Assembly: GCA_964059195.1 (NCBI GenBank) | Contig: CAXKWD010000006.1 | Coordinates: forward strand, 174,218,825 to 174,282,824 | Length of the DNA: 64,000 nucleotides | DNA from: Ectobius pallidus | Lineage: Eukaryota > Arthropoda > Insecta > Blattodea > Ectobiidae | Reading direction: 5' to 3' | Shown: positions 3,164 to 60,040 of the stretch, piece by piece | How the letters are laid out: each line of letters starts with the position of its first letter | How positions within the stretch are numbered: position 1 is the stretch's first letter | The notes under the pieces: model-generated | Seen by the model: only the letters and a program-made list of their open reading frames with translations | What the model was told of the DNA's origin: nothing | The model's database searches: none | Program-made: the position numbers and the translations under genes

Positions 3164-3484
3164 TTTATAACCATCTCAAACGGACATTTATGACACCTCA
3201 AAATCATACTCAAAATTATGAGGCAAATGGGCCTTGCCTGGGTACCCATTATTGATAAATTCCATTATACGATTGTAGTTAATATAGGAAGTTTGTATGA
3301 TATAAGAGTATCTTAAACGTACGCAGCCAGTTCGCATGTTTGAACGTCTCATAAATATTAAGGGACTGATGATGGTTTACCAGGGACTTAAATCCGCATA
3401 TCCTTAATTCTAATGCTCAGAAAGTTCATCTGATACAGCGGTGCTACTGCAAATCATCAACAAAGTCTACCAGAGTTAGGCCTA

Positions 3485-4005
3485 CATAGAGGAGAAGGAA
3501 CGTACCAAAAGTATGTTGGACATATTCTCAATTTCATTCGGATTCTGGTAACCAGATAGTGTTAACAGAATGTGAACAAATTTAATAGAACTTCCAAGGA
3601 AATATTATATTACTTGTGAAAATGACTGGATTCTGTTATTTCCAGGAATATAATTATGCTTAATGTAAGATAACGCAAAACATTGTTTCTAGCTAATTTA
3701 TATTAATGACTGCTACCTAAGGAATATATTTAATATTCATGCAATTTATTCGCGGGGAAATAATAACATAACGACTTTTGTACCGGTAATTTGCAGAATA
3801 ATCTACATACAGTGTGGATTTTTCCATATGCATAAACACAGAGACCAGCACATATTAAGTCTGAGTTATTTCTTTCTTAACGAATCGATCACAAAGTCAT
3901 TATGTCGCAAATAAAGGCCATAACATTGTGAAAATATTCAGAGTTCATTTGTTGGCTGTGTTTGTTTGGATGTAAGCACTCTGAAATACAGGCTTACAGC
4001 ATTTA
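3485..4005. repeat. Upstream tandem block, copy 3, right piece
   Basis: Resumes the block after the transposon: gtaccaaaagtatgttggac, ggaatataattatgcttaat, gcaaaacattgtttctagct, and attcagagttcatttgttgg near its end. It ends about 410 bases upstream of the first receptor's likely start codon. Sequence 3164-3484 between the transposon and this piece has no recognised match. Confidence 0.75.
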
Positions 4006-4418
4006 CACTTTACAATTATTTACTGGTAAAACACAGGAACCGTTGTGTTTAGTCCTGGCAGTGATCCATCTAGAAAGTTCGAGAATATTAACATAGTTAG
4101 GAAATAATAACATAACATCTTAATTTTTAAACATCCAGCTTTAGTTCGTAAGTTGCTAGTCAGCCCAAGGAGGAAACTTGACTGCAGCCGCACAGAATGC
4201 ATTACGTACTCTCTTAGTACTCTAAAACTACTCTGGTAAAGTTGATTCATGACCAGAGAATTAATATAATGAAACTGGCTTTGCTAAAATACAGCAAGGA
4301 ATACTCCTTGTAGACTTGTAGCAACCACGGCGATTTTTTATGCAACAGACTAGCGGTGTATGTACCTCTACGATTGCTACATTCTCTGGTATATTCGTTT
4401 CAACAGGTACATCTCACA
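4006..4418 (+). promoter_or_regulatory. 5' flank of the first ionotropic receptor
   Basis: Noncoding stretch between the repeat block and the likely start codon. Bases 4366-4418 (gctacattctctggtatatt, then cgtttcaacagg and ctcacaATG) are conserved in the start region duplicated at 58925-58985, and the last 30 bases are also conserved in front of the second receptor. The tttcaacag/gt word could be a 3' splice site of a noncoding leader exon or simply part of a conserved 5' UTR. No convincing TATA box was identified. Confidence 0.5.
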
Positions 4419-6455
4419 ATGAAGGTAACGTGGGCAGTGTTGGCACTAATTCTCATCCTGGCTACAGTAAATTCTGACGTCCTGTTAACTGAACAACGCC
4501 ATATTGTTCTTTGTTTGAAGAATATCATAACCAACAACTTCACACCGGACAGACCTGTCTACATTACATTCCCTTCCTTAAATGAAGCATACGCGCCGAA
4601 GGTTGGAAGACGTCAAATAGGATTCAAACCGCCGAAGAGAAATTATCAACGCGTCATCGATAATTTGGCAGAAACACTCAGCGATGACATGAAATGGCAA
4701 CTCATCTTATTGGAAACTAACTACAGTGATCCAGATTCCAAAAGTAAATACAAAACTCCAAAGTCATATCCTGAAGCATTTCAGTGTGTTTTATTTATCT
4801 GGCGAGTAAAAAACGATATACAAGGTGTGGTGACTTACGCTGATCAGATGATTATGTTAGAAGGGGTTAAATCGTTACACAAGAAATTTGTTACTATTGT
4901 TCTTAATGTCATGGATAAGACTGAGCTTCTAAAACATGTTTCAATTCTACTAAAACGATTTTCTGGCTTCGGAAATAACATATTTCTGGTGCCTAAACGA
5001 AGGAGAAAAAACATTGGTGCACACATAGATGTTTACACTTGGTTCCCATACAGGTTTCCGGAGATATGTGGCAGCTTCAATCATCCAGTGAGTATAGACA
5101 CTTGGATAGAGGATACGGAAGGAAGATTTCAAAACAATGCAACATTATTTCCTAACAAAAAACCTAAGCATTTTGATGGATGCCCAATTGTCGTTGGAGA
5201 ATTTAAGCAATTTGATACTGCAATAACGATGATAGAAAAATACATTATGGACCAGATATTCAGTTTGCTAAATGTAACTCCTGTTTTGACTAAAACAGTT
5301 GATGACTTCCATTTCGAATATCTTGATATCGGATATGGTTCCTTGATTCTGGATAGTTTAACAACAGGACTGTTTGGCAAAACACACTCCTACCCCACCC
5401 CACATATACACACAAAGTTGAGATGGTATATCCCCTGTCCGAAGTTGAATCCTAGACAGGGTAAGTTTTATGAGGTCTTCACTTTTCCGGTTTGGTTCAT
5501 CATGAGTCTAACATTTTTGTTAGCTGGGTTGACTGACTGGTGTATACACTGGATAGAAATTCACTTTCCAGCTGGATTAGTGTCACAAGATACGCCATCA
5601 GGGTTCTGCAATCTGTGGGCGGCCTTCCTGTCTGTCGGGGTCTCTACAATGCCGGATGGCACACGACTTAGAGTGTTTTTCCTGTCTTGGTTAATCTATT
5701 CATTTGCTGTGAGCACAATTTTCCAGGCCCATTTCACGACTTACTTAGTAGACCCAGGTAAAGCTCAAGAGATCAATACACTCGGAGAGTTCAACAGAAG
5801 TGGACTCCGCCGCTGTGCAAATGAAGATTCACTCGTACATTGGTGTTGGTTAAGAGAATATAAGAAGTTTTGTGAATCTTTACAATACTACCAGGTAGCG
5901 AAAAACTGGGGTCAAACAAAATATAGCATAGATAGAATTCAAGCAATGCTATTAACTTCAAATGAGGTAGAAAACCTTAGTATACTTGCTAATGACCTCC
6001 AAGCTGAAGCGATTAAAGTCTTGTTGCCTGGAAAGAAATTGTGTACCGTCCGAGACCTAACAATGCCTACTACACACGTGTTTGTTTTGAATACAGATAG
6101 TGTGTTCTTTAAACCTATCAATGATCTGCTACGTCATTTGCGGGATACCGGACTATTGGAGAGATTTCAAAAGAATTTAATTTTCAAAATAAGAGAAGAG
6201 GTTTATTCACAAAAACGGAAAATGTATGACTATCATAATATTGAATTTTCTCCTGAAAATGACTATTTCATTTTCACTTTGTCACATATGAAAGTTTCGT
6301 TCTATTTACTGCTTATGGGATGTGTTTTAGGAGCATTGGTATTTCTTGGAGAAGTAATTTATTCCAAACTTGATAAGTATCTGAAACCACGGGTCCTGTG
6401 TTTAGGGTCACGCAATTCGACAACTCGCTCGGTCAGGCCTGATTCCGTCCCTTAA
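4419..6455 (+). CDS. Ionotropic receptor (IR family chemoreceptor), intronless
   Basis: A divergent member of the insect ionotropic receptors, which act as ligand-gated cation channel subunits in chemosensory neurons. The frame is open from 4356 (699 residues). I prefer the ATG at 4419 (678 residues) because a signal peptide follows at once (MKVTWAVLALILILATVNSD) and the same start is conserved in the paralogue at 58818. Numbering from 4356: IR-type words ATLFPNKKP..DGCPIVV at 262-280, RWYIPCP at 356-362 just before the first membrane helix (about 375-395), pore loop about 415-432 (GFCNLWAAFLSVGVSTMP), second helix about 438-460, S2 half of the ligand domain, third helix about 645-668. N-glycosylation sequons lie at 122, 261 and 306. 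The SYTANLAAF motif of classic glutamate receptors is replaced by FQAHFTTYLVDPG, as in divergent IRs. The cytoplasmic tail is about 24 residues longer than in the paralogue. No frameshift is seen. The ligand is unknown. Confidence 0.93.
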   Translation: MKVTWAVLALILILATVNSDVLLTEQRHIVLCLKNIITNNFTPDRPVYITFPSLNEAYAPKVGRRQIGFKPPKRNYQRVIDNLAETLSDDMKWQLILLETNYSDPDSKSKYKTPKSYPEAFQCVLFIWRVKNDIQGVVTYADQMIMLEGVKSLHKKFVTIVLNVMDKTELLKHVSILLKRFSGFGNNIFLVPKRRRKNIGAHIDVYTWFPYRFPEICGSFNHPVSIDTWIEDTEGRFQNNATLFPNKKPKHFDGCPIVVGEFKQFDTAITMIEKYIMDQIFSLLNVTPVLTKTVDDFHFEYLDIGYGSLILDSLTTGLFGKTHSYPTPHIHTKLRWYIPCPKLNPRQGKFYEVFTFPVWFIMSLTFLLAGLTDWCIHWIEIHFPAGLVSQDTPSGFCNLWAAFLSVGVSTMPDGTRLRVFFLSWLIYSFAVSTIFQAHFTTYLVDPGKAQEINTLGEFNRSGLRRCANEDSLVHWCWLREYKKFCESLQYYQVAKNWGQTKYSIDRIQAMLLTSNEVENLSILANDLQAEAIKVLLPGKKLCTVRDLTMPTTHVFVLNTDSVFFKPINDLLRHLRDTGLLERFQKNLIFKIREEVYSQKRKMYDYHNIEFSPENDYFIFTLSHMKVSFYLLLMGCVLGALVFLGEVIYSKLDKYLKPRVLCLGSRNSTTRSVRPDSVP

Positions 6456-7226: not shown

Positions 7227-7601
7227 ATACCATATTGTGATAGATGTATTTTGAAATGTTCCAGTAGGCCTATTTAACATTTTATTTAAAAGTGTGAGAT
7301 TTGAATTATGTTAATCAGTTATATGTAAAAGCGAGTGAAAAATAAATAAAATATCTCACTTGAATCCAAGATGACATTTATATATAGGCTAGAATTAAAA
7401 TACGATTAAATAGTACCGGTACTAACCTATTAAGAACACTGATTTGCCATAGTTTTTGGACCAGAGACTTGATCTTTGGTATATGTGGTCCTCTAGTGTG
7501 TTCTTGTACTCTCTCAAGCTTCAGCCTTTTATGTCAAATAGTTTTTGAGTTATTGTTATTTTTAGTAAGTAATATTATTAGCGATATATTTTTTAAAAGC
7601 G
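7227..7601. other. Intergenic, nothing recognised
   Basis: AT-rich sequence with one TAGGCCTA (7265-7272) and no other feature I can support. The short open frame near 7469 has no family features. Confidence 0.5.
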
Positions 7602-11520: not shown

Positions 11521-11811
11521 GAAGCTCATTTTCCCAGAAGTCTGGCGTCTTTCCAATTGGAGTTTAATCTCCATATGATTACGTGAGAGAAACGCAATAT
11601 ATGTCATACTAATTGCTTTTATTGCGATGGTGAATGCTCACTCCGTATTACTTTCAGAATCTAATGTCTTATATAAACACCTTGAAACACGTACGAAAAT
11701 TTCGCCACTTCAACGTTTCCTCCCAGTTAGGAAAAAAAAAATCTCCAGCCCTTTCTAAGTTTACCATCTTGGTCAAACGCACAATCTGCCCATTTATAAA
11801 TCAGGGGCTTT

Positions 11812-12045
11812 CTTACTTACTCAATGACAATAGACGATTCCTAAGCAAGGAAAAGGAATATCATCTATTTTATGGAACCCGAAGGTTCATTGCCGGGCTT
11901 ATCTGAGCCCGCTATTCAACCCTATTCTGTACTAATTCCATCAAACCATCCCTTAAAGCTATACTAATATTGTCCTCCCACCTACGTCTAGGTCTTCCAA
12001 GTGGTCTTTTCCCTTTGGGTCTCCCAGTCAATTTCTTGAGATTTA
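11812..12045 (-). mobile_element. 5'-truncated LINE, 3' end
   Basis: Minus-strand copy of the end of a non-LTR retrotransposon. The (cttactta) tail is at the left, then an untranslated region shared with 12050-12445 and 30432-30835, then the coding end (GRPRRRWEDNI-like, from ggacaatattag). Same family as the plus-strand fragment at 41183-41985. Confidence 0.7.
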
Positions 12046-12445
12046 TCTTACTTACTTAGGCCTACTCAATGGCAATAGACGATTCTTAAGCAAGCCAAAG
12101 GAATATTATGTATTTTATGGAACCCGAAGGTTCATTGCCGCGCTTACCTGTGCCCGCCATTCAACCCTATTCTCTGCTAACTTCATCAAACCATCCCTCG
12201 CAAATCCTACTTCCCTTAAATCTATATTAATATTGTCCTCCCACCTACGTCTAGGTCTTCCTTTCGGGTCTTCCAGTCAATACTTTTGAGATATGTCTTT
12301 CCTCCCCCATTTCATCCTCCGTGATTTAATTACCCTTATTATATTTGGTGAAGAGTACAGGTTATGAAGCTCGTCGTTATGCAGTTTTCATCTCTCTTAG
12401 GCCCAAATATTTTCCTAAGCCCCCTGTTTTCGAACACTCCCAGAT
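12046..12445 (-). mobile_element. 5'-truncated LINE, second copy
   Basis: Head-to-tail with the previous copy. It reaches further into the coding region: complement of gagcttcataacctgtactc and the KIFGPKRD region near 12405. The 3' tail contains a TAGGCCTA at 12057-12064 where sister copies have only TA. Confidence 0.75.
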
Positions 12446-14275: not shown

Positions 14276-14355
14276 ATTATATTTTCTGAATTTTACATAC
14301 ATAGGCCTAGTGTGTATCAAATTTTATACTAGCTTCGCTCAGGTTCTCGGGAAAA

Positions 14356-14950
14356 GGTTTTTGGAATTTTCCTGTGGTTTGCAGCCTAAAAGCTATATGT
14401 GTACCAAATTTCAAGTTTGTAGCTCTTCTATAAGTGGACAAACAAATTGAGCCCTCAGTGAGTGAGCCCTTTTTCGTGGGTTTTTAGGACTAAAATAGAA
14501 ACAATTACTTTTTGGAATTTTCCTGTGGTTTACAGCCTAAAAGCTAGGCTATATGTGTACCAAATTTCAAGCTCATCTGGAAGTGGGTAAACATTAATGT
14601 CAGTGAGTGAGCCCTTTTTCGGGGGGTTTGTAGGGCTAAAAATTAAAAATATTTACTTTTTGGAATTTTCCTGTGGTTTACTGCCTAAAAGCTATATGTG
14701 TACCAAATTTCAAGTTTCTAGCTCATCTGAAAGTGGGCAAACATTAATGTCAGTGAGTGATCCCTTTTCGGGGGCTTTTAGGGTTAAACATTTAAAAAAA
14801 TAAACTTTTTGGAATTATCCTATGGCTTACAGCCCAAAAGCTATATATGTACCAAATTTCAAGTTTCTAGCTCATCTGGAAGTGGGCAAACATTAATGTC
14901 AGTGAGTGAGTGAGTGAGTGAGTCAATCAGTCAGCCATGTGGCTTTATAT
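14356..14950. repeat. About 150-bp tandem repeat with (GTGA)n end
   Basis: Four units, each opening tttttggaattttcctgtgg, passing through atgtgtaccaaatttcaag, and closing near gtcagtgagtgagcccttttt. The last runs into a GTGA/GTCA microsatellite at 14898-14935. The layout resembles the tail region of a non-LTR or Helitron-like repeat, but the class is not certain. Confidence 0.75.
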
Positions 14951-15909: not shown

Positions 15910-15924
15910 AATTCATTAGGCCTA

Positions 15925-16372: not shown

Positions 16373-16387
16373 AATTCATTAGGCCTA

Positions 16388-17610: not shown

Positions 17611-18268
17611 TTCTATATAGCCTACATAAAAATGAATGTATGTGTGTGTGTCCTTTATGCATTACTATGCCATTCATCCGATCACCATGAAACTTTGGGA
17701 AGTTGTTGAATACATTCCCGCAAAGGCATACTACATTTTTAATTTTAGCTTTCGTTCGCGAGTTATGAGTGAAAACGGGATTGAGACGTACATTTCTTGC
17801 GCTTTCGAAACATCAGTTTTCAGTTGTCAAATCAATTGCAGATGACTTTGCCTACTTTCGTCATACCTTGGAAATAAAAGCATCGCGATCGTTCGAATTT
17901 TGTAAGCCCACCATGGCCGAATCATTTGTTTATAATGTCAAGGCACGCAGACAGATGAAATTTTCACCCTAGACGGAAGAAGAATAGTGAATATAGCCCT
18001 AAATTGACAAACATTATGCAGGGTTTTTTAGGCCAGGGAACTCGAATCTGAGGTTATTTTTCCCATGCTGCGCTTTCTAATCGTGGAATTCACTTCAAAG
18101 CCAGATTTACAGTTGTTTAATTAATTAGGCCTATCAATCGTTTAGTTTAGACCTATGAATGTTTCGTGTGCAAAGTGTTAGTAAATATAATAGTTTAATT
18201 ATTTTGCTCTTAATTTATAATCTTCCTATTAATTATTGTGGGCGAAGCCGCGGGGATCTGCTATAAGC
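17611..18268 (+). mobile_element. Helitron-like non-autonomous element
   Basis: 5' end ttctatatag then cataaaaatgaatgtatgtg; 3' end gtgggcgaagccgcgggg followed by ctgctat, one base off the usual ctgctag. The body matches 20645-21434. No Rep/helicase coding sequence, so it is non-autonomous. Confidence 0.65.
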
Positions 18269-20644: not shown

Positions 20645-21434
20645 GTTATAATAATAAAAGGAAGTGTTGGTCTGTTAGTTTGTCTTTCTGTCTGTGCGCG
20701 AAACCTACTGTAAGCAGACAGCTGAAATTTTACACATAGATGGATTGAAGGATGGCCGATTGCACCTCGAAGCCGGATTTTTAATTTTCGCTTTCGTTTG
20801 CGAGTTATGAGTGAAAAACTGGCAGAAAACGTGATTTTTTTTTTCCGCTATCGAAGCATCTGTTTTCGGTAATACATTTCAATTGTCAAATCAATTGCAG
20901 GTGACTTTGACTTTTTTTTTCGTACCTTGAAAACACGAGCAGAGCGATTGTTTTCAATAGGCCTATATCGCTTGGAATTATTGAACGTTTCGATTCTGTG
21001 AGCTCACTTTGGTCGATTCATTTCTTTAATAATGGCATAAGGCACGCAGACGTCTGAAATTTTCAACATAGACGAAAGAGGGATAATGAATATAGGCCTA
21101 AAGAGGGATAATGAATATAGATAATGAACATTGTTCGGTTTGGACGGAACTCACTATACAGGGGTTTTCTGGGCCAGGGAACTTGAATCTGAGGTCGTTT
21201 TTCCCAGGCGGCGCTTTCTAATCATGGAATTTACTTCAAAGCCGGATTTTAACCTGTTTCATTAATTATTAATCATTTAGTTTAGGCCTATGAATGTTTC
21301 GCGTGTAAGTGTTAATTATTTATTTATTTATTTATTATTTATTATTTTACCATGAAAATATTTAAATTATTTTCTTCTTAATTTTTAATCTTCGGATTAA
21401 TATTATCGTGGGCGAAGCCGCGGGTACCTGCTAG
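20645..21434 (+). mobile_element. Helitron-like non-autonomous element
   Basis: The body shares gcgagttatgagtgaaaaac and gcacgcagacgtctgaaatt with 17611-18268 and, inverted, with 34307-34765. It ends gtgggcgaagccgcgggt, ctg, CTAG (21431-21434) followed by T, the Helitron 3' pattern of a CG-rich hairpin a few bases before CTRR. The 5' end is less certain (tataataataaaaggaagtg). No coding region. Confidence 0.75.
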
Positions 21435-26764: not shown

Positions 26765-28390
26765 AAATTTTATAATTTTTTTGTTTTCTTTAGAACTAAT
26801 TTTCAGGAAAATATGTAAAATCACACAAAAGTCTCCCCTCCCCAAAACGAAATCCTGTATCCGCGACCTAAGAATAATAAAATAAAATATAATAAAGCAT
26901 GGCATTCCTCAGCTTGTACCCGAAAGTAAATCATATCACAGCATATTCCTGGATTTAACAAGATACTTAATACAAAATTCAAGGCTGTCATAACTCGGCG
27001 GCTCGTGGAAATGCTGAAATCCTATCCTGTCCCCCCTTAGCTACTGTGTCTGCTAATTTATACCAAAATTATTCCTCCTTTCAGAAGCATTTATAACATT
27101 GTGTGTATTATTTATTCCCTAGTTAGAACTGAACTCAGCAAGCATAAAAATTATTCTCATCGCCTCTCCCATCTCCTAGAACGAGACCTCATAAACATGC
27201 CTAGCGTCATATTATTTCCTTTCCTCCATGACTGTCATCTCGGACATGGAAGACTCCACACTTTATCTTGAGCCGAAAAAATGCGGGGGTGAAGGGAGCT
27301 GATATTGCATGCAGTATAAGAGACTGACTATTGCAGAAGGCGGTGAGTTGAAATTGACGTTGTTTCTGAAGGGTTGCCAATTGTCAGAAAATATAACGTG
27401 TGTAGTTTTATGCGGGTACACAATAGAACTAACTGTAATTTGTAGCACTTTCAACTCTCGCTACCAAACTAAAAATGTTATATTGATTCAGATATTATAG
27501 TAGAATATATCGCTGGAGAAATGAATAATGTAATATATTTAGGCCTATTTAGACAGTTTCTCTCCCGGTCTTCAGAATATAGAAAATCGTTTAAAATTCG
27601 TAGCATTATACATGTAGGCATACTTGAATACGCACTTTCACATGCCTGAATTGATGTAATTTTACTAAATACCTTTCGCGAAAGTTTGTAGGTAATTAAT
27701 ACAACGAAATAATAAAACTTGACTTGTTCTTTTCTCCGACAGATTCAGCTTAAAACACATTAAATTGCTTTTCCTTCCATTTCATTTATTTGGTTTATTA
27801 TTTCGCTGATTTCCGATATTTCTTGGTTTAAAGGATCTTTATTTTTAACTTCGTTGTCACTTATATCGACCATTTCCACAACACCAATACTGTTCTTCTA
27901 ATATCCCTGGATTTATTCTGTCATTTTCAGAATAATATGATGTAAACAAATAGAAAAAAATTGACGGTAGCTCAAGAATGCCTCAAAGGGAAATTTTTGG
28001 GTACGGCAATACTGGGGACGGGTAGCGATCTTCATTTTTTCGAGCGAGGCCTTCTCTATATGGATGGTTTTGAGCATTATGGAGTGTGAAGCTCAAGATA
28101 AAGTGTGCGAATAATAGAAAATTTTTCAACGAGTGATAAAATAGTTTTATCAACAAATTAGCAGGTGATTGCGTTCATTAATTCAATCGCTGGCTGATTT
28201 AAATCATTTATTCCCTATTCAATGTTTAGTGTACCGGCTTGATATAAATTATGGTGAAATAATAGGCCTATTAAAGGTCAGACATTATACCTAGGTACTA
28301 AAAAATATTTTATATTACACGCTTTGTAAAACAGCTGTTTGTCGACTATTAACACGCCGAAAAGTAGCACTTTACCAGCCTAGGCCGGTA
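26765..28390. other. Intergenic, nothing recognised
   Basis: No supportable gene, RNA or repeat. Two TAGGCCTA sites at 27540 and 28263. The overlapping open frames near 27263-27500 on both strands lack family features. Confidence 0.45.
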
Positions 28391-30398: not shown

Positions 30399-30431
30399 CT
30401 AGCAGCTTCACCCGCGGTTTTTTACTTAGTT
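30399..30431 (-). mobile_element. Helitron-like 3' end fragment
   Basis: CTAG (30399-30402) then cagcttcacccgcgg, an inverted Helitron 3' hairpin region directly abutting the previous element. The body is replaced by a LINE tail. Confidence 0.55.
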
Positions 30432-30835
30432 GCTTACATACTTACTCAATGGCAATAGACAATTCCTAAGCAAGCTAAAGAATATTATCTATTTTATGGA
30501 ACCCGGAGGTTCACTGCCGCGCTTACCTGAGCCCGCCATTCAACCCTATTCTGTGCTAGCTCCATACAACCATCCCTCGCAAATCCTACTCCCCTTAATT
30601 CCATTCTAATATTGTCCTCCCACTTGCGTCTACGTCTTCCAAGTGGTCATTTCCCGTCGGGTGTCCCAGTCAATACTTTGGAGATTTCTTTCCTCCCCCA
30701 TTTCATCCTCCGTGATTTAATTACCCTTACTATATCCGGTGACGAGTACAGGTTATGAAGCTCGTCGTTATGCAGTTTTCATCTCTCTTAGGTCCGAATA
30801 TTTTCCTAAGCCCCCTGTGTTCGAACACTCAATTA
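30432..30835 (-). mobile_element. 5'-truncated LINE, 3' end
   Basis: Same family as 11812-12445, inverted: the cttacatacttactcaatgg tail at the left; coding words for GRPRRRWEDNI, VIKSRRMK and LRKIFGPKRD are recognisable on the minus strand in broken frames. Confidence 0.75.
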
Positions 30836-31044
30836 CCAAACCCGAACGAACATTTTTCTTTTCCCAAGTTGTAACAGAATATCGTTACAAAATTTTGGTA
30901 TAGAGATAGATATGGCATAAAAAACAAATTAATATTAGGCCTACATAATTTTCGTATGTTGTAGGCCTACTGGTAATTTCTTTGTTTGTGTTTCATAAAG
31001 ACCTAATTCAGTTTAAAAACAACGTTTTTTGATGTGTAAAGAAA

Positions 31045-32519: not shown

Positions 32520-33040
32520 GTAGTAAAGACTTTAAAATATGTCTGTAAGGAGTGTCTTGCTAAATCCATTTACAGTATAGGCCTAATGTGTATCTTGTAT
32601 CAGTATATCATGCTTAGTAAAGGCTACATATTGTTTACCTTTTTTCGATGAGAGAATCGCTGGTCTTCGGTGATGGGTGGCCTCGGTTTGCACCAAGACC
32701 GCTCTTCACCTCTAAAAAGAGGCCCCTATCTATGCTCCTTCCTAAGTACTACCTTCGTTAATACCTTGAGGTGTCCAGCAGTATTAGGAATGGAGCTTAC
32801 ACAGACCTCACTTCAAAATTCCACGCCAAAGCACAGAATTATGAAGAGAAGGTCTGAATCTAAGTGATGTCTTCCTCAGCATGCTCTTGATTTAGAAAAG
32901 TTTATTTTCTTGATGTCACAACACTAAATAAAAACACTATCTTCTAGTCTTCTTGTTTCTTGATATAGGAAAGTTTGTAAACAGTCACTATTACAAACCG
33001 ATAAACCCGAAAAAGTAAAATTCGATATCGATGTTGGGTA
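32520..33040. other. Intergenic, nothing recognised
   Basis: A short open frame (32670-32867) has no family features. No repeat match found. Confidence 0.4.
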
Positions 33041-33951: not shown

Positions 33952-34306
33952 AATATCTGCAATTAGAGAAATATTTTATATATACCAACTGCATATTCAA
34001 AGCAAAAGAGATAAAATGGCGAATATTAGGTAAATAGGCCTAACCAGTAACCCTCTCCCAGAAATAACGATATGATTCGGTATTTTGTTGGGTTGTTGAA
34101 ATTAATACACCTACCTAACGAAATGTGCACAGAAAATGACAAAGAGCGTTCTTAATATGAAAGTAGGCTACATTATTTCCATTCTCAGGCCAACATTGAT
34201 TAATAAGGTGTCAGGGATAGAATTATAGCATATTCAGTACCCTGTCTTTGTGTGAAGCTGACACAACTGAATACGCAATCCCTGCAATACAGCCTCTTAT
34301 TCACTA

Positions 34307-37439: not shown

Positions 37440-37830
37440 GTTTTAGGCCACGATTTCTTGAGAAAGTTTGATAAGCATATGTGGGTAGTGTTATTTGTCA
37501 AAGCTGACTGTCCTGCAACTTCCAAAGCCGTATATGAATACTGTAAAACAATATGTTTTCATGAGAACTGATTTGCATATGATTTGCACTTTCTAATATA
37601 TTACCATAAAATAGGCACTAAATTAGTCATTGCTCCGGTACCGGTCAACCGATTAGGTCCAATATCAATAGGCTTCTTTCCATGGATGTTATAAATGCGT
37701 ATACCAAGTTTCATCAAAATCCGATAAAGCGTATTTGAGTTATCGCGTGTAGGCCTATACACACACTGACGGACCGACATTTTTCAGCCCACCATACCAT
37801 CTCATAAAGTACGGTACCATTCTGGCCTTT
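37440..37830 (-). repeat. Interspersed repeat, GTCTGTCCG type, inverted
   Basis: Complement of the 24327-24860 family: ataccaagtttcatcaaaat, ggaccgacattttt, catctcataaagtacggtac. Confidence 0.7.
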
Positions 37831-38903: not shown

Positions 38904-39575
38904 GATACTGTTTGCAGACGATAGCAGCGAACGCAACATTGTTGCAAAGAAACAGATGAATATGAACCGGTCTGGATATTTGTGTGATAAACTGGTTTGG
39001 CCAGCGATCTATATCACGGAGGCGAGTTACAACTAGTCAAATATATCATTTTTATTTTGCAACAATTATCATAAAGTCTTTCCTTTCAGAAGCTGAAACG
39101 TGTATTAATTATTACACTGGTTTCTTATAAACTCGGAAGAATTAATTGTAAATTCGGAGACTGCCTGCTAAGGTCACGACAAATGATTGATTTTTTCCTT
39201 CTACTTAATTTTTAATCACTGAATTTTTTGCAGTCGTACCGAACTACCTTGTACACAACTCCATCAATCATATCTATTGCGAGCGAATTCTGCTAAATCC
39301 AGATTGGGCGCTCCCTTTTCGTGTTATGTTGCAACGACAACTAGAAAAATGTGAAAGAACTCCTATGGGACACCTGCCACAATAGAAATAGGCCTATACC
39401 ATGTCCCTCAAGTCCCTTAATAGTGTCGTTTATTTAATTTACTACTTGAAGACTACAAATGATATATCTTTCATGTAACTTACGTTATTTCATATTAAAG
39501 AGAAACTCAAATCGTTTGGTTATACAATGACCCGATATAGGAACGATTTATAACCATAAATTCCACGCTCTGCAA
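38904..39575. other. Intergenic, nothing recognised
   Basis: No supportable features apart from one TAGGCCTA at 39389. Confidence 0.4.
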
Positions 39576-40532: not shown

Positions 40533-41180
40533 GCATAAAAGTATTTTTTTGTTCTGCTAGTGACGTAGCCTGAAATTTATAAGAGTTAAGTTTAATAATT
40601 AATTAGCTATAGGCTACGTCTAGTTGTCCAAGGCTTCTGTCAAATACGACGAAGTACCGAAGCTTGAAACGAGTTAACGGATTAAGAAAATGCGCAGAGG
40701 TCTTCCCGTCTTTGCCTTGAAAAAACAGAAGACGTCTACTTTCACTCATAACATGAATATAAGAAACATACAATTAGAGAAGGCCATGGCTTGGTTGCAC
40801 TATGTGATAAGCAATAAATGTTAATGGTACCGGATCCTGTTGCCTAGCGACTGGTATATCGGCTCATAGCTATAGACAGACAGAATTAATTCAGTTAATT
40901 TGGAATTCCCAACTTTCATTAGTGGGCCTAATTGAATAAATTGTTCTACTTCCGTGTCCCGTGCCTCTAATTGGATTCAAATTCCTCCGATTCTTATGTC
41001 ATCCACCCGGCTTGTTGCTTCCATGCAACAGTGGTCTATATCAATATTTTAACTTCCCTGAGACATCTTCCTTTTGGGAGGAGATCTATGGGTTTGACCC
41101 AGGAGATATTATAATGTAATGAATGAACCGATCGCCACCAAGAATAAAATATTACTTTTTAACGTTGGTTAAGTAGGCCT
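40533..41180. other. Intergenic, nothing recognised
   Basis: No supportable features apart from a TAGGCCTA at 41174. Confidence 0.4.
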
Positions 41181-41182
41181 AT

Positions 41183-41985
41183 ATGGTCATGGAACGTCAA
41201 AATAATGGTCGACAAAATATTAGAATAGCCGGTAAATCGTTCGAACAAGTGGAAAAATTCAAATATCTTGGAGCAATAATTACAGACACAAATAATATTA
41301 AGACAGAAGTTAAGTCTCGGCTAAAGTCAGGAAATGGTTTTTATGCACTTCAGGAACTCTTATTTTCTCGTCTTCTGTCCAAAAATAAAAAATTATAGGC
41401 CTAAGACAATAATTGTCCTGCCGGTTGTATTACCTAATGGACGTGAGACATGTTCGCTTACTCTTCGGGAAGAACATAATCTGAGAGTGTTCGAAAACAG
41501 GGGGCTTAGGAAAATATTTGGGCCTAAGAGAGATGAAAATGGGGACTGGAAAAAACTGCATAACGGCGAGCTTCATGACCTGTATTCTTCACCAGATAGG
41601 CCTATATAGTAAGGGTAATTAAATCACGGAGGATGAAATAGGCTAGGCATGGGGAGGAAAGAAATAGGCCTAATTTCGCAGTATCTTTTTTATTTTATTT
41701 ACTGAAAAATCAGGAACTGTAATGGAAAAAAAAAGTATAAAATAGAAGAGAAGATGGCTCTTTGATGAATAAGATGAAATATTTTCACTACTGTTCCCAA
41801 TTTTTCAATAAATAAAATAAAAAGATACTGCGCAATTATGGGTAGGCCTACTGCAAAATTAGGCATGTTTGCTATATCTAAAAGGTAATGACTGAGAGAC
41901 CCGAAGGGAAAAGACCACGTGGAAGACCTAGACGTAGGCGGGAGGACAATATTAGGATGGATTTAACGTAAGTAGTATTTGCGAG
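41183..41985 (+). pseudogene. LINE reverse-transcriptase C-terminal fragment
   Basis: Broken coding end of a non-LTR retrotransposon. Frame 1 (41183-41398) gives FEQVEKFKYLGAIITDTNN and KSRLKSGNGFYAL. A shift moves to a second frame (about 41393-41609) with TCSLTLREEHNLRVFEN, LRKIFGPKRD and ELHDLYSSP. After a noncoding interruption a last piece near 41905-41975 gives EGKRPRGRPRRR and EDNIRMDL. This order is characteristic of the region downstream of the reverse-transcriptase core in a LINE family common in insects (RTE/Jockey-like; clade not decided). At least one frameshift and several stops make it dead. It carries at least four TAGGCCTA octamers, one apparently inserting two codons at 41396. 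It matches the minus-strand LINE tails at 11812-12445 and 30432-30835. Confidence 0.8.
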
Positions 41986-42635: not shown

Positions 42636-42677
42636 TGTCTATTATTACGTTGAATAATTAGATGGAATATAGGCCTA

Positions 42678-43734: not shown

Positions 43735-43744
43735 TATAGGCCTA

Positions 43745-44194: not shown

Positions 44195-44345
44195 AGGCCC
44201 AGGATTTTTAGGCTTTTATAAAAGGTATTTATTTTTGTGGAATAGCCCTTTCTTGGCTTTAAACAAACAATTTTAGCCGTCTTAATAAAACATATTGCTT
44301 AGGCCTAATGAACACTAATATTAACATCGAAAATTGTATCATAAT
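44195..44345 (-). repeat. Inverted copy of part of 14110-14265
   Basis: aggatttttaggcttttata, ttttagccgtcttaataaaa and aacatcgaaaattgtatcat correspond to the complement of 14265-14120, with an insertion near 44291-44315. Confidence 0.6.
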
Positions 44346-51075: not shown

Positions 51076-51379
51076 TTTCAATTTTTCTAGATTATATCCA
51101 TTACAGTAGGCGATACATGAAAACCTATCACAGTAAAGTTGTAGAAAAATTTAAAATGAACATTTTTTGTTTAACACATTTCTTTGTACATTTAACAGAT
51201 ATCAAGATAAAAACGAAATAAGGACAGCTTGAATGCGAATTTCAGAACATAAATGTAAATTAAAATATGAATGACATTTTGTTGCCCCTAGCAACAAGAA
51301 AACTATAGGCCTAATGTACTTATTGTTGTGAAATGCATTCAGTTTAGCTCAGTCGCAATGAACACACTAAAACCAATTA

Positions 51380-51595
51380 CAGCGAGGTGGTAGGCCTATG
51401 GGCTAACAGGGAAGAGGTCCTGAGTTCAAGTCAAACCTCGTTGCCGCCCAAATTGACTTGGGTTTTTCATGGTTCCGTCGTTCGCAAAGGCAAACGCCGG
51501 GTTTGTAGGACTTGCTTATTTTCCATAACTCATCGCCGCTATGTCACTGGATATTATAATCGTTTAAACTGAATATCACATAAGACATCACTAAA
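51380..51595 (+). mobile_element. tRNA-derived SINE (family D), copy 2
   Basis: agcgaggtgg, B-box-like gagttcaagtcaaac, ccaaattgacttgggttttt, catggttcc and gcaaacgccggg, parallel to 50240-50350. Contains TAGGCCTA at 51391-51398 in the A-box region. Confidence 0.6.
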
Positions 51596-51633: not shown

Positions 51634-52187
51634 CAGCGTTTCTCAACCTATGGTCCCGCGGACTACCGGTGGTCCGCGAACACGGTGCAGATGGGCCGCA
51701 GACATAATTAATTAAAACATATCATAAAGCAAGTGGGAAGTAAAGAAGTAGAAATTTTTCACATAAAATGGACACTAGATGTCAAAGGTTTGAAATCTTC
51801 GAAAATACAGGTCATATGGACTAAATTTGACTAATATTGAGCAAAAAAAAAAACAGGAACTCTGCAAGAGGGGTCAAGCTCAACCGTCTCATTAAAAGTG
51901 AGTAATAACATAATTCCTAATTATATTATCAAATTGGTAATACATATTAAAGTGTGCTCAAAATATAATTTTACTGTCAATAGTTTCATTCCAATTCAAT
52001 AACTGTGTTTCCGTCGGATTAAGAAAAAATGTATTTCGTTAAAACGACCTATAATTTAATACCCCAAATATTAAGAATATAGGCCTACATATAGCCTACT
52101 TTTAAAAATTGGATGTAAAATTTGGGGTCCGTAAAGTTTTTTACTCATTTTAGAGGTCCTCGGGTTCAAAAAGGTTAAGAAACGCTG
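51634..52187. mobile_element. hAT-type MITE with 8-bp target duplication
   Basis: Ends cagcgtttctcaacct and aggttaagaaacgctg. Flanked by a perfect 8-base duplication atatagac (51626-51633 and 52188-52195), as hAT elements produce. The cagcgtttctcaacc terminus, and the ggtccgcg words next to it, are typical of Charlie-like hAT ends. 554 noncoding bases. Confidence 0.9.
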
Positions 52188-52829: not shown

Positions 52830-53252
52830 TTCTACTGTCATTGATTATTATTATTGTTATTATTCTTATTATTATTTCACGGTAAAAGCATTGAACATAA
52901 AGATCGACCCTGATGCTTTCCGTTCTAGATACTTGTTAGTTTTATGAAAATGTAATAAGTAAAATTTAATTGTCTCTTTAATTTAATTTTTTCTGTGCTA
53001 GCCTTTAACACGTATATGCGAGAAAGTTTGTGCAACGTATTTTTGCACCATTTATTTACTCGGTTATCGACAAAATTCAGAGCTCGAAACGAAAGTGAAA
53101 TGAAATGAAATGAAATAACTAACTTCTGGAACAATGTCGTTTCTATCCCATTCGTTAAATCAAGTTGAAAATCTAGAGCGTAAGTTATTAATATTCTGAA
53201 AATTTGATAACTACATTAAGGATCATAACCTAGGCCTATACTTGTATTTCAA
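52830..53252. other. Intergenic, nothing recognised
   Basis: A short GAAAT microsatellite at about 53094-53117; otherwise no supportable features. Confidence 0.4.
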
Positions 53253-55560: not shown

Positions 55561-55986
55561 TTAATGTCCATGGGAAGACGTCTATTCATAATGGATAAAA
55601 TCGGTTGACCTGTTTCGGAGTAATGCTCAATTTAGTGCCTATTTTATGGTAATATACGTATTCGAAAGAATTTATAAAAAAATGAAAATCAGTTATCTTG
55701 ACAACATAGCCTATTGTTTTACTGTGATCTTATAAGGCCTTGGAAATTAAAATACAGGTAGCTTTGACAAAAAACACTATTGATTTACATGCGCTTATCC
55801 GTTAAAATGACCCAGGTGGCCGAGATGGTAGACCTTTCTTCTTCCGTAAGCCCTGCTTAATGAATAAATCTGGAGCTTAACTTTGAAATCAATTAAAAAA
55901 AACATATTCTGCATATCATAATTGCAGTCATAACTGATTAAACAAAAACATACAGGCACTTTGTTACATCAGTTTACCTGATTTTA

Positions 55987-56841: not shown

Positions 56842-58818
56842 TCACAGCTTGAATCTGTGAATACAGACTTCTCCAAGAAATACCAGTGCTCCTAATATAC
56901 ACCCCACAATCAGCATATAAAACGAGAATTTCATATGTGACAAACTGAAAACGAAGTACTCTTCTTCAGAAGTTTCCACTATTTCAATATAATCTTTCAG
57001 ATATTTTGAAAAATTCCCTCCTTTCATATTGAAAATGAAATTGCTTTTGAATCTCTCCAGTAGCCCAGTGTCCCTTAACCGACGTAGCAGATCATTGATA
57101 GGTCTGAAGTACACACCAAATGTAGGCATAAGCAATGCCATTGTAGAAGGCATTGTCAGATCTCTGACGGAACAGAGTTTGTATCCTGGCAACACCAGGA
57201 CTTTAAACATTTCAGCTTGTAAGTCATTAGCAAGTACGCTGACATTTTGTGACTTATCTGAGGTAATGAAAGCTATTTGCACTTCATCTAACTCATCTTT
57301 TGTTTCATCCAAAGATTCCTTCTCTACTTCATTTCGAATTATTTTTACTGTTGTTGAGTTACAGAAATCGTCATAATCTTCACGCAAACACCACATTCCC
57401 ACTGAATTAAATTCACCATACTTAGGTAATCCACTTCTTTTGAATTCTTCAAGCGTATTAATTTCTTGACTTTTACCAGGGTCTACTAAGTAACTTGTGA
57501 AAAACGCCTGGAATATTGTGCTCACAGCAAATGAGTAGATTAACCAAGAAAGGAAAAACACTCTAAGCCGTGTGCCACTTGGCATTGCAGAGACCCCGAC
57601 AGACAGAAAGGCGGCCCACAGATTGCAAAACCCTGATGACGTATTATCTGAGTCTAATTCAGTTGCAACGTTGATTTCAGTCCAGTGAATACACCAGTCA
57701 GTCAACCCAGCTAACAGAAATGCTAGACTCATGATGACCCAGACCGGCAAAGTGAAGACCTCATAAAACTTACCCTGTCTGGGATTCGACTTTGGGCAAG
57801 GAACAAACCATCTTAACTTTGTTTGTATGTATGGTACGGGATACGAGTTACTAGTGATCGATAAATGTCCAGATATGTAAGAATCTAGATACAAGGAACC
57901 ATATTCAATATCACCTGTAACACGTTTGTAATTATAGAAATATCCCCGATCAACAGGCGTTACATTTAACAGCTTGAAGGTCTCGCTTAAAATGGATTTT
58001 TCAATTTTCGATGCTGTTGTTTCCATTTCCAAAGTTGTTTTAACCAGAATTGGGCATCCGCCGAAGTCTTTAGGTACTTTGTTAGGGAATAATGTTGCAT
58101 TGTTTTGAAATCTTCCCTCAGCATCCTCTATCCAAGTGTCTATAATCACTGGATGCTTGTAGCTGCCACATATCTCCGGAAATCTGTATGGGAACCAAGT
58201 GTAAACATCTATGTGTGCGCCAATGTTTCCTCTTCTTCGTTCAGGAAACAGAAATATGGAATTTCTGTTGCCAAAGGCAGCCAGTGGTAATGAAACTACT
58301 TCTAGAAGTGATGATTTGCTGATCACATCTAGTACAACCGTCACATATATCTTATGTAATATTGCTTTTTCCCCGAAAATCATGGTGACCTGATCCATAT
58401 AAGCTACATACCCAAATTCGTCGTGGTGTATTTGCCAGATAAATAAAACACACTGCTCGGCTGGTTGATATGACGATGGCAATGAATAATTAGAAATGCT
58501 GCCTGAACCACTGTTAATATTTTCAACAAGGATAAGCTGCCATTTCATGTCATCGTTGAGAGTTTCTGCCAAGGCATCGATGACGCGTTGATAATTTCTC
58601 TTCGACGGTTTGAATGCTAGTTGACGCCTTACTGTCTTCGGCGCGTATGCTTCATTTAACGAAGGGAATGTAATGTAGACAGGTCTGTCCGGTTTGAAGT
58701 TCTTGGTTATGATATTCTTCAAACAAAGAACAATATTGCGTTGTTCTGTTTGCAGGACGTCAGAATTTACTGCAACCAGGATGAGAATTAGTACCAACAC
58801 TGCCCACGTTACCTTCAT
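56842..58818 (-). CDS. Ionotropic receptor (IR family chemoreceptor), intronless
   Basis: Paralogue of the receptor at 4419-6455, on the opposite strand. The frame is open from 58884 (680 residues). I choose the ATG at 58818 (658 residues) because it begins the signal peptide MKVTWAVLVLILILVAVNSD, conserved in the other gene, and has the same ctcaccATG context. Numbering from 58884: conserved HIDVYTWFPYRFPEICGS at about 224-241, LFPNKVPKDFGGCPILV at about 265-281, RWFVPCP at 358-364, first membrane helix about 377-397, pore loop about 417-434 (GFCNLWAAFLSVGVSAMP), second helix about 440-461 leading into YLVDPGK, S2 region with SVRDLTMPS (572-580) and RPINDLLRRLRDTGLLERF (594-612), third helix about 651-673. 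The tail is only about seven residues (CIHRFKL). The N-terminal 100 residues and the channel core are highly similar between the two proteins, while residues about 125-220 and 480-545 diverge strongly, suggesting ligand-specific change. No stop or frameshift. Ligand unknown. Confidence 0.93.
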   Translation of the reverse strand: MKVTWAVLVLILILVAVNSDVLQTEQRNIVLCLKNIITKNFKPDRPVYITFPSLNEAYAPKTVRRQLAFKPSKRNYQRVIDALAETLNDDMKWQLILVENINSGSGSISNYSLPSSYQPAEQCVLFIWQIHHDEFGYVAYMDQVTMIFGEKAILHKIYVTVVLDVISKSSLLEVVSLPLAAFGNRNSIFLFPERRRGNIGAHIDVYTWFPYRFPEICGSYKHPVIIDTWIEDAEGRFQNNATLFPNKVPKDFGGCPILVKTTLEMETTASKIEKSILSETFKLLNVTPVDRGYFYNYKRVTGDIEYGSLYLDSYISGHLSITSNSYPVPYIQTKLRWFVPCPKSNPRQGKFYEVFTLPVWVIMSLAFLLAGLTDWCIHWTEINVATELDSDNTSSGFCNLWAAFLSVGVSAMPSGTRLRVFFLSWLIYSFAVSTIFQAFFTSYLVDPGKSQEINTLEEFKRSGLPKYGEFNSVGMWCLREDYDDFCNSTTVKIIRNEVEKESLDETKDELDEVQIAFITSDKSQNVSVLANDLQAEMFKVLVLPGYKLCSVRDLTMPSTMALLMPTFGVYFRPINDLLRRLRDTGLLERFKSNFIFNMKGGNFSKYLKDYIEIVETSEEEYFVFSLSHMKFSFYMLIVGCILGALVFLGEVCIHRFKL

Positions 58819-58985
58819 GGTGAGGCGTACCTGTTGAAACGAGTATATGACCCAATTTAAAATCTGACAAATACCGTCGTCCAAGTTAAGCCGTACATGT
58901 AAACACTGCCCACGTTACCTTCATGGTGAGATATATATGTTGAAACGAGTATACCGGAGAATGTAGCAGCAATACAGGTATAGTC
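58819..58985 (-). promoter_or_regulatory. 5' region of second receptor with duplicated start
   Basis: Directly upstream of the ATG is a leader conserved with the first gene (ctcgtttcaacaggtac). At 58900-58924 a second copy of the first eight codons occurs (ATG at 58924, giving MKVTWAV then FTCTA and a stop), preceded by ctcgtttcaac and gctacattctccggtatact, which matches the upstream region of the first gene at 4366-4418. The outer copy therefore carries the ancestral 5' flank and acts at most as a 12-codon upstream reading frame. Confidence 0.8.
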
Positions 58986-60040
58986 GACCAGCAGGAAGAT
59001 ATCCGTGTTAAGCCTTGCTTTGTTAGACAGTAATGTTTGAAGATTTGCCTACACTTTTTAGGTGGAAATCTAAAAAGGACTACTTATTGCAGTCTTTATC
59101 ATGGTGCGAGCTCCGGGAAGTTCCGGAAGGTTGTGACATGATTTGTGCCGTGATTTCTTTGTTTATGTTCTGTTGCGAAACTTGAAGTCTCATTTGGGTC
59201 ATGTTTCTATATAAAATATGGCGAAGTTTACACCACGGTATCTATATAGGCTCACATTGTGCAAATTACAAACGTCATTAGTTTACCATTATGTAGCTGT
59301 TTCCTACAACATTAAGTACCAATGGAGTAATAATTTACTGTACATTATTGTCCGGGACTTGTTAGGGGAAGAGCTGGTAGTCTCGGATAGTGTCTGGACA
59401 AGCCTAAAATTTCCTTCTGGTAGGTGTTTGCAGGGCCAGGAGTGGATAAATTTTTGAAGAGGGTGAACATTCTATTGAGTGGATAGACAGTACTGTTTGT
59501 GAGGTTCAGTGTTTTATACACGAAGATAACTTCACCAAGCAGTCACAAGAAGAAGGCTTAGTTGTTTTATATACTGAGATCACTAACAGAACCACTGTAT
59601 TGCAGACTATAAGTTGTGGGTTTAGAATTTCATTCTGTTCGAAGATTCTTGGTTCAGATTTGTTTTTCTGAAGAGCTTAAGTCCAGTGGAATCGGACTTC
59701 ATAATTGTTCAACCAACGTGGTAACTGATTGTTCTATCCTTTTATTTAAGTAAATAGGGGGTGAATAAGAGAAAACTGGGAAGAAGACAACATGATGTTT
59801 GCCGTAAATAATGACAGGGACGAAAGTTTTTGCAAACGCTGGGTAGGCCTACATAAAAAATGTACAAATCTAGAGGGAAACGCATTATTTCAGAAGTGTG
59901 ATATTTGTAATATATATATATATTACTTTTAACATGGAGATACGTTGAGAAACTTGGCGACTATATAGAAAAATAGACAAAATATGTCCCTTCATGTGTG
60001 CATTTGTTTGTAATTGTACCTATTAAACTTTTTGTAAAAG
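58986..60040 (+). other. Intergenic with a possible zinc-finger remnant
   Basis: The open frame 59218-59457 (79 residues) has no family features. At 59830-59915 the plus strand reads SFCKRWVGLHKKCTNL then CDIC, resembling a PHD-type zinc finger with two extra residues where TAGGCCTA occurs. It is too short to assign, possibly from a retroelement. Confidence 0.3.

What the first reader, a model, noticed from the sequence alone, without database searches (positions are those of the whole stretch)
3477..59851. Massive excess of the palindrome TAGGCCTA
By my reading the exact octamer occurs 31 times: 3477, 7265, 12057, 14302, 15917, 16380, 18126, 20958, 21093, 21283, 27540, 28263, 30936, 30962, 32578, 34035, 37750, 39389, 41174, 41396, 41597, 41665, 41843, 42670, 43737, 44300, 51306, 51391, 52080, 53231 and 59844. 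With equal base use 64,000 positions would give about one, and fewer in AT-rich DNA. Near variants (TAGCCTA, TAGGCTA) are also common. It occurs in unique DNA, LINEs, SINEs and Helitrons, but not in the two receptor genes. A sequence this short spread over unrelated contexts is not an ordinary repeat family. It could be an excision footprint (TA-GG-CC-TA) of a TA-targeting transposon with GG...CC ends, a micro-insertion product, or a bound site.
Basis: partly seen in the sequence, partly recalled or inferred. Interest (0 to 1): 0.85.

Follow-up and report, generated by a model that had tools for sequence, protein, structure and literature searches.

The report
Genome-wide TAGGCCTA insertion scars
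A large insect-like genome carries the palindrome TAGGCCTA about 520,000 times, apparently because a plain TA has again and again been turned into TAGGCCTA by a clean six-base insertion, most likely the scar left when a still unidentified jumping gene hopped out.

Summary
TAGGCCTA occurs 31 times at every listed coordinate; 300 dinucleotide shuffles average 0.56, maximum 4. It is genome-wide: 520,230 copies in the 2.12-Gb assembly.

Paralogue alignments show how it can arise: one copy of a repeat has TAGGCCTA where others have TA, a 6-bp insertion (GGCC plus a second TA). In a young hAT family one copy reads CATAGGCCTAATAC and five read CATAATAC; that copy is 96.6-98.3% identical to them. A shorter class, TAGGCTA/TAGCCTA, numbers 318,704 and 321,427; GG or GC alone is not enriched. 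The target is symmetric: 53% of octamers are R-TAGGCCTA-Y, against 25% of TA sites that are RTAY.

Best explanation: excision footprints of a TA-targeting cut-and-paste transposon with ends starting GG(C). No donor was found. One GGG...CCC family was rejected: it is a hAT with 8-bp duplications. Only 21 of 106 octamers had any paralogue hit across the site, and several do not fit. A longer repeat and telomerase capping fit badly. Paper searches found no description. The species was not determined.

The parts
3477..3484 (.). TAGGCCTA
7265..7272 (.). TAGGCCTA
12057..12064 (.). TAGGCCTA in a dispersed repeat; paralogues at 11808-12049 and 30430-30830 lack it; ambiguous inside a TTAC run
14302..14309 (.). 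TAGGCCTA
15917..15924 (.). TAGGCCTA, left copy inside the 15-bp duplication (15910-15924) of a SINE-like insertion; paralogue L129 has the empty site GATTCATTACTTAAAAAA
15925..16372 (+). SINE-like insertion that duplicated a pre-existing octamer
   Evidence: sequence shows GTTCACCGCTGTGGCTCAGGGCATGCG...; tRNA-type origin is inferred, not tested
16380..16387 (.). TAGGCCTA, right copy of the same duplicated octamer
18126..18133 (.). TAGGCCTA; paralogue near 21 kb has TA, paralogue near 34.4 kb has TATA
20958..20965 (.). TAGGCCTA; lies inside a longer stretch absent from the paralogue near 34.6 kb (not a clean 6-bp case)
21093..21100 (.). TAGGCCTA; paralogue near 18 kb has TAGCCCTA
21283..21290 (.). 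TAGGCCTA; paralogue near 34.4 kb has TA, paralogue near 18.15 kb has TAGACCTA (one point change)
27540..27547 (.). TAGGCCTA
28263..28270 (.). TAGGCCTA
30936..30943 (.). TAGGCCTA
30962..30969 (.). TAGGCCTA
32578..32585 (.). TAGGCCTA
34035..34042 (.). TAGGCCTA
37750..37757 (.). TAGGCCTA in a dispersed repeat; paralogues read TACAGA or similar, ambiguous
39389..39396 (.). TAGGCCTA
41174..41181 (.). TAGGCCTA
41396..41403. TAGGCCTA; one weak paralogue with TA, not reproduced by the stricter test
41597..41604 (.). TAGGCCTA; five paralogue hits lack it (GATATAGTA against GATAGGCCTATATAGTA, 8-bp difference: one TA more than the simple model)
41665..41672 (.). TAGGCCTA beside one arm of an inverted repeat (41671-41838)
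41843..41850 (.). TAGGCCTA beside the other arm of the same inverted repeat, at a different offset
42670..42677 (.). TAGGCCTA directly left of a TIR element (CAGGGTGTTAATG..., 42678-43734)
43737..43744 (.). TAGGCCTA directly right of the same TIR element
44300..44307 (.). TAGGCCTA inside a 24-nt stretch absent from the paralogue near 14.1 kb (not a clean 6-bp case)
51306..51313 (.). TAGGCCTA
51391..51398 (.). TAGGCCTA
52080..52087 (.). TAGGCCTA
53231..53238 (.). TAGGCCTA
59844..59851 (.). TAGGCCTA
14545..14551 (.). TAGGCTA, the shorter class: tandem-repeat sister units have TA (AAGCTAGGCTATATG against AAGCTATATG)
55707..55713 (.). TAGCCTA, the shorter class: three paralogue alignments have TA

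Best explanation
Each TAGGCCTA is mostly the scar of one event in which a TA dinucleotide, preferably in the context R-TA-Y, became TA-GGCC-TA. Inferred mechanism: a cut-and-paste DNA transposon duplicates TA on insertion and carries ends starting GG, probably GGC. When it leaves, a few end bases stay behind and the host joins the break. A 3-base overhang GGC on both sides would give exactly the two main classes seen: annealing through the self-complementary GC gives TAGGCCTA, and full-length annealing with one mismatch gives TAGGCTA or TAGCCTA. Shown: the TA to TAGGCCTA insertion at the sites that could be tested, the genome-wide number of the octamer, the two product classes, and the symmetric target preference. 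Inferred: that most untested copies arose the same way, that a transposon makes them, and the overhang model. Not shown: the donor.
For: (1) Empty sites. Young hAT family: L155 has CAATACATAGGCCTAATACTTG; L156 and L159 have CAATACATAATACTTG, and L158, L160 and L129 the same junction ACATAATACTT with point changes nearby; L155 is 96.6-98.3% identical to these five over 291-294 aligned bases. Satellite of contig C1: CTAACTAGGCCTACTATGG against CTAACTACTATGG; of 390 monomer hits in the strict test 176 were best matched by TA without a gap and 134 by TA with a nearby gap, 7 carried the octamer, the other 73 were best matched by other forms. Window 18126 and 21283 against paralogues with TA. 15917 against L129. 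A dispersed repeat at C1:202884612, TCAATGGCAATAGGCCTAGACAATTCC, against TCAATGGCAATAGACAATTCC in a window copy. (2) Product classes. In 324 kb (both strands) TA-GGCC-TA 210 against 7.1 and TA-GGC-TA (equally GCC) 99 against 28.3, whereas TA-GG-TA 145 against 145.7 and TA-GC-TA 132 against 113. The shorter class also shows TA empty sites. (3) Target. The base before TA is A .41 and G .33, against .33 and .17 for all TA (chi2 56); positions -2 to -6 are near background. RTAGGCCTAY is 275,671 of 520,230 genome-wide, against 7,156 of 28,754 TA sites that are RTAY in the sample. (4) Same-genome comparison. TA-bounded inverted-repeat candidates in the sample start most often with CAG (7 of 73, several of one family), and TA-CAG-TA is itself in excess, 108 against 67; C(A/T)GTA is the published Sleeping Beauty footprint (PMC3878927 Table 1, passages). 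(5) Decay. Single-mismatch forms are in excess by 47 (133 against 85.7), against about 101 for the exact form, as expected for scars laid down over roughly the last 0.14 substitutions per site (simple model, my arithmetic) and then left to drift.
Against: No donor found. A scan of 324 kb for TA-bounded inverted repeats gave three starting GG: a hAT with 8-bp duplications, a 98-bp foldback that is not abundant, and two inverted copies of a dispersed repeat. At one dispersed-repeat site no recurrent element junction appeared among 100 listed of 440 matches, but most were point variants and only two looked like scars, so power is low. A transposase search (PF13359) was asked eight times and never answered. 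Not every octamer fits: of 106 tested, 21 had any hit across the site. L145:4073 and L151:6746 are ancestral sequence of a shared repeat, two paralogues read GCA or CTA instead of TA (L140:3294, L141:4824), 41597 differs by 8 bp, and 20958 and 44300 sit in longer indels. In an unbiased list of 277 small insertions between repeat copies (L121-L128 and L139 left out), 52 could be read as TA to TA-X-TA; only 2 had X = GGCC (plus one GGCCTA and one GACC) and 5 had GGC/GCC, beside 3 each of A, CA, CG and ACT, so other TA-bounded insertions are not rare. One would also expect many intact copies beside half a million scars.
Confidence: 0.58

Rival explanations
1. Direct micro-insertion: a host enzyme or domesticated transposase cuts at RTAY and end joining adds GGCC (or GGC) without any element having been there.
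For: Empty sites show TA and filled sites TAGGCCTA with nothing larger; no donor found; symmetric target.
Against: Non-templated addition does not normally give one fixed tetranucleotide (general knowledge); the GGC and GCC by-products look like trimmed or mismatched element ends; TA-CAG-TA, an ordinary footprint string, is also in excess in the same genome.
Confidence: 0.22
2. Telomerase capping: a staggered break at TA is extended with GG by the insect telomerase (TTAGG repeat, recalled) and the two ends are then joined, giving TAGG-CCTA.
For: The insertion equals two TAGG ends joined head to head; empty sites are TA.
Against: Priming on TTAGG should favour T before TA; T is depleted (.18 against .34). 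TTAGGCCTAA has 4 both-strand counts (2 sites) and TAGGTTAGGCCTA none in 324 kb.
Confidence: 0.05
3. A bound site (regulatory, centromere or chromatin protein) kept by selection.
For: Palindromic and very common.
Against: Found in a satellite, a hAT copy and other repeats, often in one copy of several; single-mismatch decay products accumulate; spread is only mildly clumped (variance/mean 1.4 in the window, 1.9 over 26 regions).
Confidence: 0.04
4. The octamer is part of a longer dispersed repeat.
For: A minority are: L145:4073 and L151:6746 lie in one repeat with one-mismatch variants elsewhere, and one satellite carries it in an amplified unit.
Against: Flanks beyond one base are at background composition over the sample.
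Confidence: 0.03
5. Footprint of the abundant hAT family with TAGGGACCGGATT ends.
For: 5,346 + 5,385 exact ends against 11 + 16 for the control; its ends read TAGGG...CCCTA.
Against: Its insertions duplicate 8 bp (18 of 23 copies exact), whereas octamer insertions add 6 bp with only TA duplicated.
Confidence: 0.03

Closest known systems
Excision footprints of Tc1/mariner elements (Sleeping Beauty TA-C(A/T)G-TA; PMC3878927 Table 1, passages)
   Same: Insertion at TA, TA duplicated, a few end bases left between; small set of length variants
   Different: Scar is GGCC/GGC instead of CAG/CTG; no element with matching ends found; about half a million exact copies
Tc1 (TACATGTA) and Minos (6-bp) footprints (recalled, from no call)
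   Same: A palindromic TA-NN-NN-TA scar or a 6-bp insertion
   Different: Different bases; donor known there, unknown here
ISL2EU / PHIS superfamily transposons (PMC4482050, passages)
   Same: End bases usually GG
   Different: ISL2EU duplicates AT in A|AT|T; no PHIS group in the passages read has a TA duplication
hAT transposons
   Same: Ends TAGGG...CCCTA in this genome
   Different: 8-bp duplication; the aligned octamer insertions have none

Membership tests
TA-target cut-and-paste excision footprint (Tc1/mariner type) | TA at the empty site, TA duplicated at the filled site | tested here: met
   met at the clean sites, exceptions listed under evidence against
TA-target cut-and-paste excision footprint (Tc1/mariner type) | Extra bases equal the terminal bases of an element with inverted repeats in the same genome | tested here: not met
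   No TA-GG...CC-TA family found in 324 kb; the whole genome could not be scanned for inverted repeats
TA-target cut-and-paste excision footprint (Tc1/mariner type) | Restricted set of footprint lengths, not one fixed string | tested here: met
   GGCC and GGC/GCC enriched, GG and GC not; 318,704 + 321,427 of the short class genome-wide
TA-target cut-and-paste excision footprint (Tc1/mariner type) | Matching transposase in the genome | not tested
   Only PF13359, a Harbinger-type family (recalled), was asked; the genome search did not complete it; no Tc1/mariner transposase family was searched
hAT footprint | 8-bp target duplication | tested here: not met
   The aligned octamer insertion adds 6 bp with TA only, while the TAGGGACC family itself has 8-bp duplications (18 of 23)
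ISL2EU footprint | AT duplication in A|AT|T | tested here: not met
   Target is RTAY with TA duplicated; definition from PMC4482050 passages
Interstitial TTAGG telomeric joints | T before TAGG and longer TTAGG runs | tested here: not met
   T depleted; TAGGTTAGGCCTA absent from the sample
Dispersed repeat family | Shared sequence beyond the octamer | tested here: not met
   Positions -2 to -6 at background; a minority of copies are exceptions

The most novel reading that the evidence does not exclude
No ordinary transposon is needed: a resident enzyme, for example a domesticated TA-specific transposase, recurrently cuts RTAY sites in the germline and a dedicated joining step writes GGCC or GGC, a sequence-specific insertion mutation that has produced up to about a million scars and may still be going on.
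Probability: 0.18. Interest if true: 0.88.

Novelty: new variant of a known kind. Interest (0 to 1): 0.68.

Why it matters
If the copies are scars, this genome keeps a countable record of several hundred thousand transposon excisions, far more than the elements seen. It would let one measure excision history, the choice of end-joining product and target preference from sequence alone. It would also show that one mutation process can make a GC-rich palindrome one of the most over-represented octamers of a genome. If no transposon made them, it is an unknown, highly sequence-specific insertion process.

Tried and rejected
Intact donor: scanned the window and 26 regions (324 kb) for TA-GG...CC-TA inverted repeats. 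Many hits were inner parts of longer inverted repeats. L133:911-1008 (GGTCTACAAG) is not abundant: 215 + 215 against control 270 + 289. L129:543-1558 (GGGACCGGATT) is abundant but a hAT. L137:5821-7723 and L142:7484-7887 also had GG ends and were not followed to genome counts. No convincing TAGG-starting element end among the repeated 11-mers listed, the hAT apart. The 467-bp and 228-bp insertions next to octamers are a SINE-like insertion (15917/16380) and a stretch holding an inverted repeat (41671-41838). Five-base variants (GAGCC 9 against 1.6, GTGCC 8 against 1.8, GGGCC 6 against 1.5) looked enriched but several are members of one repeat.

Among the 80 printed most had only the matched pair; the nine inspected were tandem or clustered repeats and their origin was not determined. 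This says nothing about animals. A crude test of fish papers (TAGGCCTA 3 of 13 against AAGGCCTT 4 of 40, judged by title) shows no clear difference. My recollection that the octamer is common in fish sequences is untested.

Species: one primer from a Blattella germanica paper (PMC7650587, passages) had no match; the organism stays undetermined. The two 680-700-aa ORFs read as ionotropic-receptor-like: one gave a Lig_chan hit just below the Pfam cut-off, the other none. An insect is inferred.

Print: searches in the open PMC library found no description of the octamer excess in the listings seen; subscription papers and preprints were not covered. Passages of PMC9179366 and PMC10379824 were also seen and gave no TA-GG family.

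Full report
Observation. The octamer TAGGCCTA is present exactly 31 times in the window, at the coordinates given. Expected counts are 0.61 by a first-order model and 0.56 by 300 dinucleotide shuffles, maximum 4. It is not local: the assembly that holds the window (G000, 2,124,618,226 bases, 410 contigs; window at C6:174218825-174282824) has 520,230 copies. I sampled 26 ten-kb regions at regular positions on contigs C1-C6; 74 octamers lie in those 260 kb, 0 to 8 per region, 21 of 26 regions with at least one. With the window the sample is 324 kb and holds 105, against 3.2, 3.6 or 5.9 expected from order 1, 2 or 3 models. The other 15 strings of form WWGGCCWW occur 2-10 times each. Scaled to the genome, chance would give roughly 21,000-39,000 copies, so the excess is 13- to 25-fold (my arithmetic).

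What changes. Alignments of repeat copies show a TA in one copy and TAGGCCTA in another. The cleanest set is a young hAT family met by accident. L155 reads ...CAATACATAGGCCTAATACTTGTAAAG...; L156, L158, L159, L160 and L129 read ...ACATAATACTTGTAAAG... or the same with point changes; L157 diverges at this place and is not counted. L155 is 96.6-98.3% identical to those five copies over 291-294 aligned bases, so the event is recent. In a satellite at the start of contig C1 the unit CTAACTACTATGG has become CTAACTAGGCCTACTATGG in an amplified unit; of 390 hits in the strict test 176 had TA without a gap, 134 TA with a nearby gap, 7 the octamer, and 73 were best matched by other forms. In the window, 18126 has sisters with TA and with TATA; 21283 has a sister with TA and another with TAGACCTA, a one-base decay. 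15917 and 16380 are one octamer copied by a SINE-like insertion that made a 15-bp duplication; the unoccupied paralogue in L129 reads GATTCATTACTTAAAAAA, so the octamer was there before the SINE. A dispersed repeat has TCAATGGCAATAGGCCTAGACAATTCC at C1:202884612, where a window copy reads TCAATGGCAATAGACAATTCC.

Misfits. In the strict test 106 octamers were examined and only 21 had any hit across the site, so for most copies the origin is inferred. L145:4073 and L151:6746 are members of one repeat that has one-mismatch forms elsewhere: ancestral sequence, not insertion. L140:3294 and L141:4824 have paralogues with GCA and CTA. 41597 differs from five paralogue hits by 8 bp, one TA too many. 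20958 and 44300 lie in longer indels. 41396 gave TA in one loose alignment and not in the strict one. 12057 and 37750 are ambiguous. An unbiased list of 277 insertions of 3-14 bp between repeat copies (L121-L128 and L139 left out; L155 and later not yet fetched) held 52 that could be read as TA to TA-X-TA: GGCC 2, GGCCTA 1, GACC 1, GGC or GCC 5, and A, CA, CG and ACT 3 each. The GGCC and GGC events are there but do not dominate that list.

Product classes. Among TA-X-TA strings in the 324-kb sample, counted on both strands against an order-2 model, X = GGCC stands at 210 against 7.1 and X = GGC (equally GCC) at 99 against 28.3; GG/CC (145 against 145.7) and GC (132 against 113) are not enriched. 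Five-base forms (GAGCC, GTGCC, GGGCC; 6-9 against about 1.6) are also raised, but several of these belong to one repeat. Genome-wide TAGGCTA and TAGCCTA number 318,704 and 321,427, controls about 71,000. The short class is also inserted at TA: window 14545 and 55707 have sisters with TA. Two main lengths, with nothing below three bases, is what one expects if both broken ends carried GGC: two bases of self-complementary GC give TAGGCCTA, and three bases with one central mismatch give TAGGCTA or TAGCCTA. Sleeping Beauty's C(A/T)GTA (PMC3878927 Table 1, passages seen) follows the second rule. Simple fill-in of a two-base GG overhang would give the octamer too. This step is inference.

Target. 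The base before TAGGCCTA is A .41, G .33, T .18, C .08, against .33.17.34.15 before all TA (chi2 56). Positions -2 to -6 are at background, so the sample as a whole shares no longer sequence. Genome-wide RTAGGCCTAY is 275,671 of 520,230, 53%; in the sample 7,156 of 28,754 TA sites, 25%, are RTAY. A palindromic preference around the cut points to a symmetric enzyme.

Age. Exact copies exceed chance by about 101 in the sample and the 24 single-mismatch forms by about 47 (133 against 85.7). Scars laid down at a constant rate for ever would give equal numbers; the ratio fits activity over about the last 0.14 substitutions per site (a simple model, my arithmetic).

Donor. I looked for elements bounded TA-GG...CC-TA. 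In the window and 26 regions many such pairs were inner parts of longer inverted repeats. Of 73 TA-bounded inverted-repeat candidates of any kind seven began CAG and three GG: L133:911-1008, not abundant; L145:4812-5209, two inverted copies of a dispersed repeat (one search shows that repeat elsewhere); and L129:543-1558. The last has ends TAGGGACCGGATT, 5,346 + 5,385 exact genome-wide, and the 100 places listed are mostly facing pairs. Ends of 23 copies show an 8-bp duplication, mostly of the form NTNATNAN, exact in 18. That is a hAT, and the TA belongs to its end, so it cannot leave a TA-GGCC-TA scar with only TA duplicated. A junction test at one dispersed-repeat site gave 440 matches, 100 listed; most are A-to-G point variants, two look like scars, and no recurrent element end appears. 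The power of that test is low. PF13359 searches did not complete, and no Tc1/mariner family was searched.

Rivals. Telomerase capping would favour T before TA; T is depleted, and TAGGTTAGGCCTA is absent from the sample. A bound site kept by selection does not explain presence in one copy among several of a satellite and a transposon, nor the decay. A longer repeat is excluded for most copies by the flanks. A direct micro-insertion without any element remains open, and is the most novel reading.

Known or not. Searches in the open PMC library found no account of this excess in the listings seen. ISL2EU elements start GG but duplicate AT in A|AT|T (PMC4482050, passages), so they do not fit.

Verdict. 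The sequence change is shown at the sites that could be tested, the abundance is shown genome-wide, and the cause is inferred.

Noticed in passing
L129:541-1560, L155-L160 and other copies on contig C1: Abundant young hAT-type family with ends TAGGGACCGGATT and 8-bp duplications, 5,346 + 5,385 exact ends genome-wide; the listed pairs on C1 are mostly 0.6-1.2 kb apart.
   Followed up: partly
324-kb sample, 13 loci: A second TA-bounded palindrome, TACCGGTA, 15 copies in 13 loci against about 2 expected despite its CpG; genome count was asked but not answered.
   Followed up: partly
324-kb sample: TACAGTA/TACTGTA is in excess (108 against 67), fitting scars of Tc1-like elements with CAG ends; TA-bounded CAG inverted repeats are present (e.g. 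L141:9432-9754, L140:2713-3596).
   Followed up: partly
window 42678-43734: TIR element CAGGGTGTTAATGAATAACA... with an octamer directly on each side: either two scars or an unusually long duplication (TATAGGCCTA on both sides).
   Followed up: partly
window 18126-18133 and paralogues near 21 kb and 34.4 kb: Three states at one homologous site: TA, TATA and TAGGCCTA, which could be empty site plus two different excision products.
   Followed up: no
window 33067-33967: 45-bp minisatellite, 20 copies at 93% match, with open frames of 285 and 121 aa on the two strands.
   Followed up: no
window 4356-6455 (+) and 56842-58884 (-): Two related ORFs of 699 and 680 aa resembling insect ionotropic receptors (one Lig_chan match just below cut-off).
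   Followed up: partly
G000:C1:1-360000: Repeated octamer spacings at the start of C1 (places listed) suggest large tandem arrays that carry the octamer.
   Followed up: no
L156:798, 992, 1234: Three octamers within 440 bp, each preceded by TCA.
   Followed up: no
L080:2626-3912 (viral contigs): Eight TAGGCCTA within 1.3 kb of a viral-collection contig, not a simple tandem array; nature not determined.
   Followed up: no
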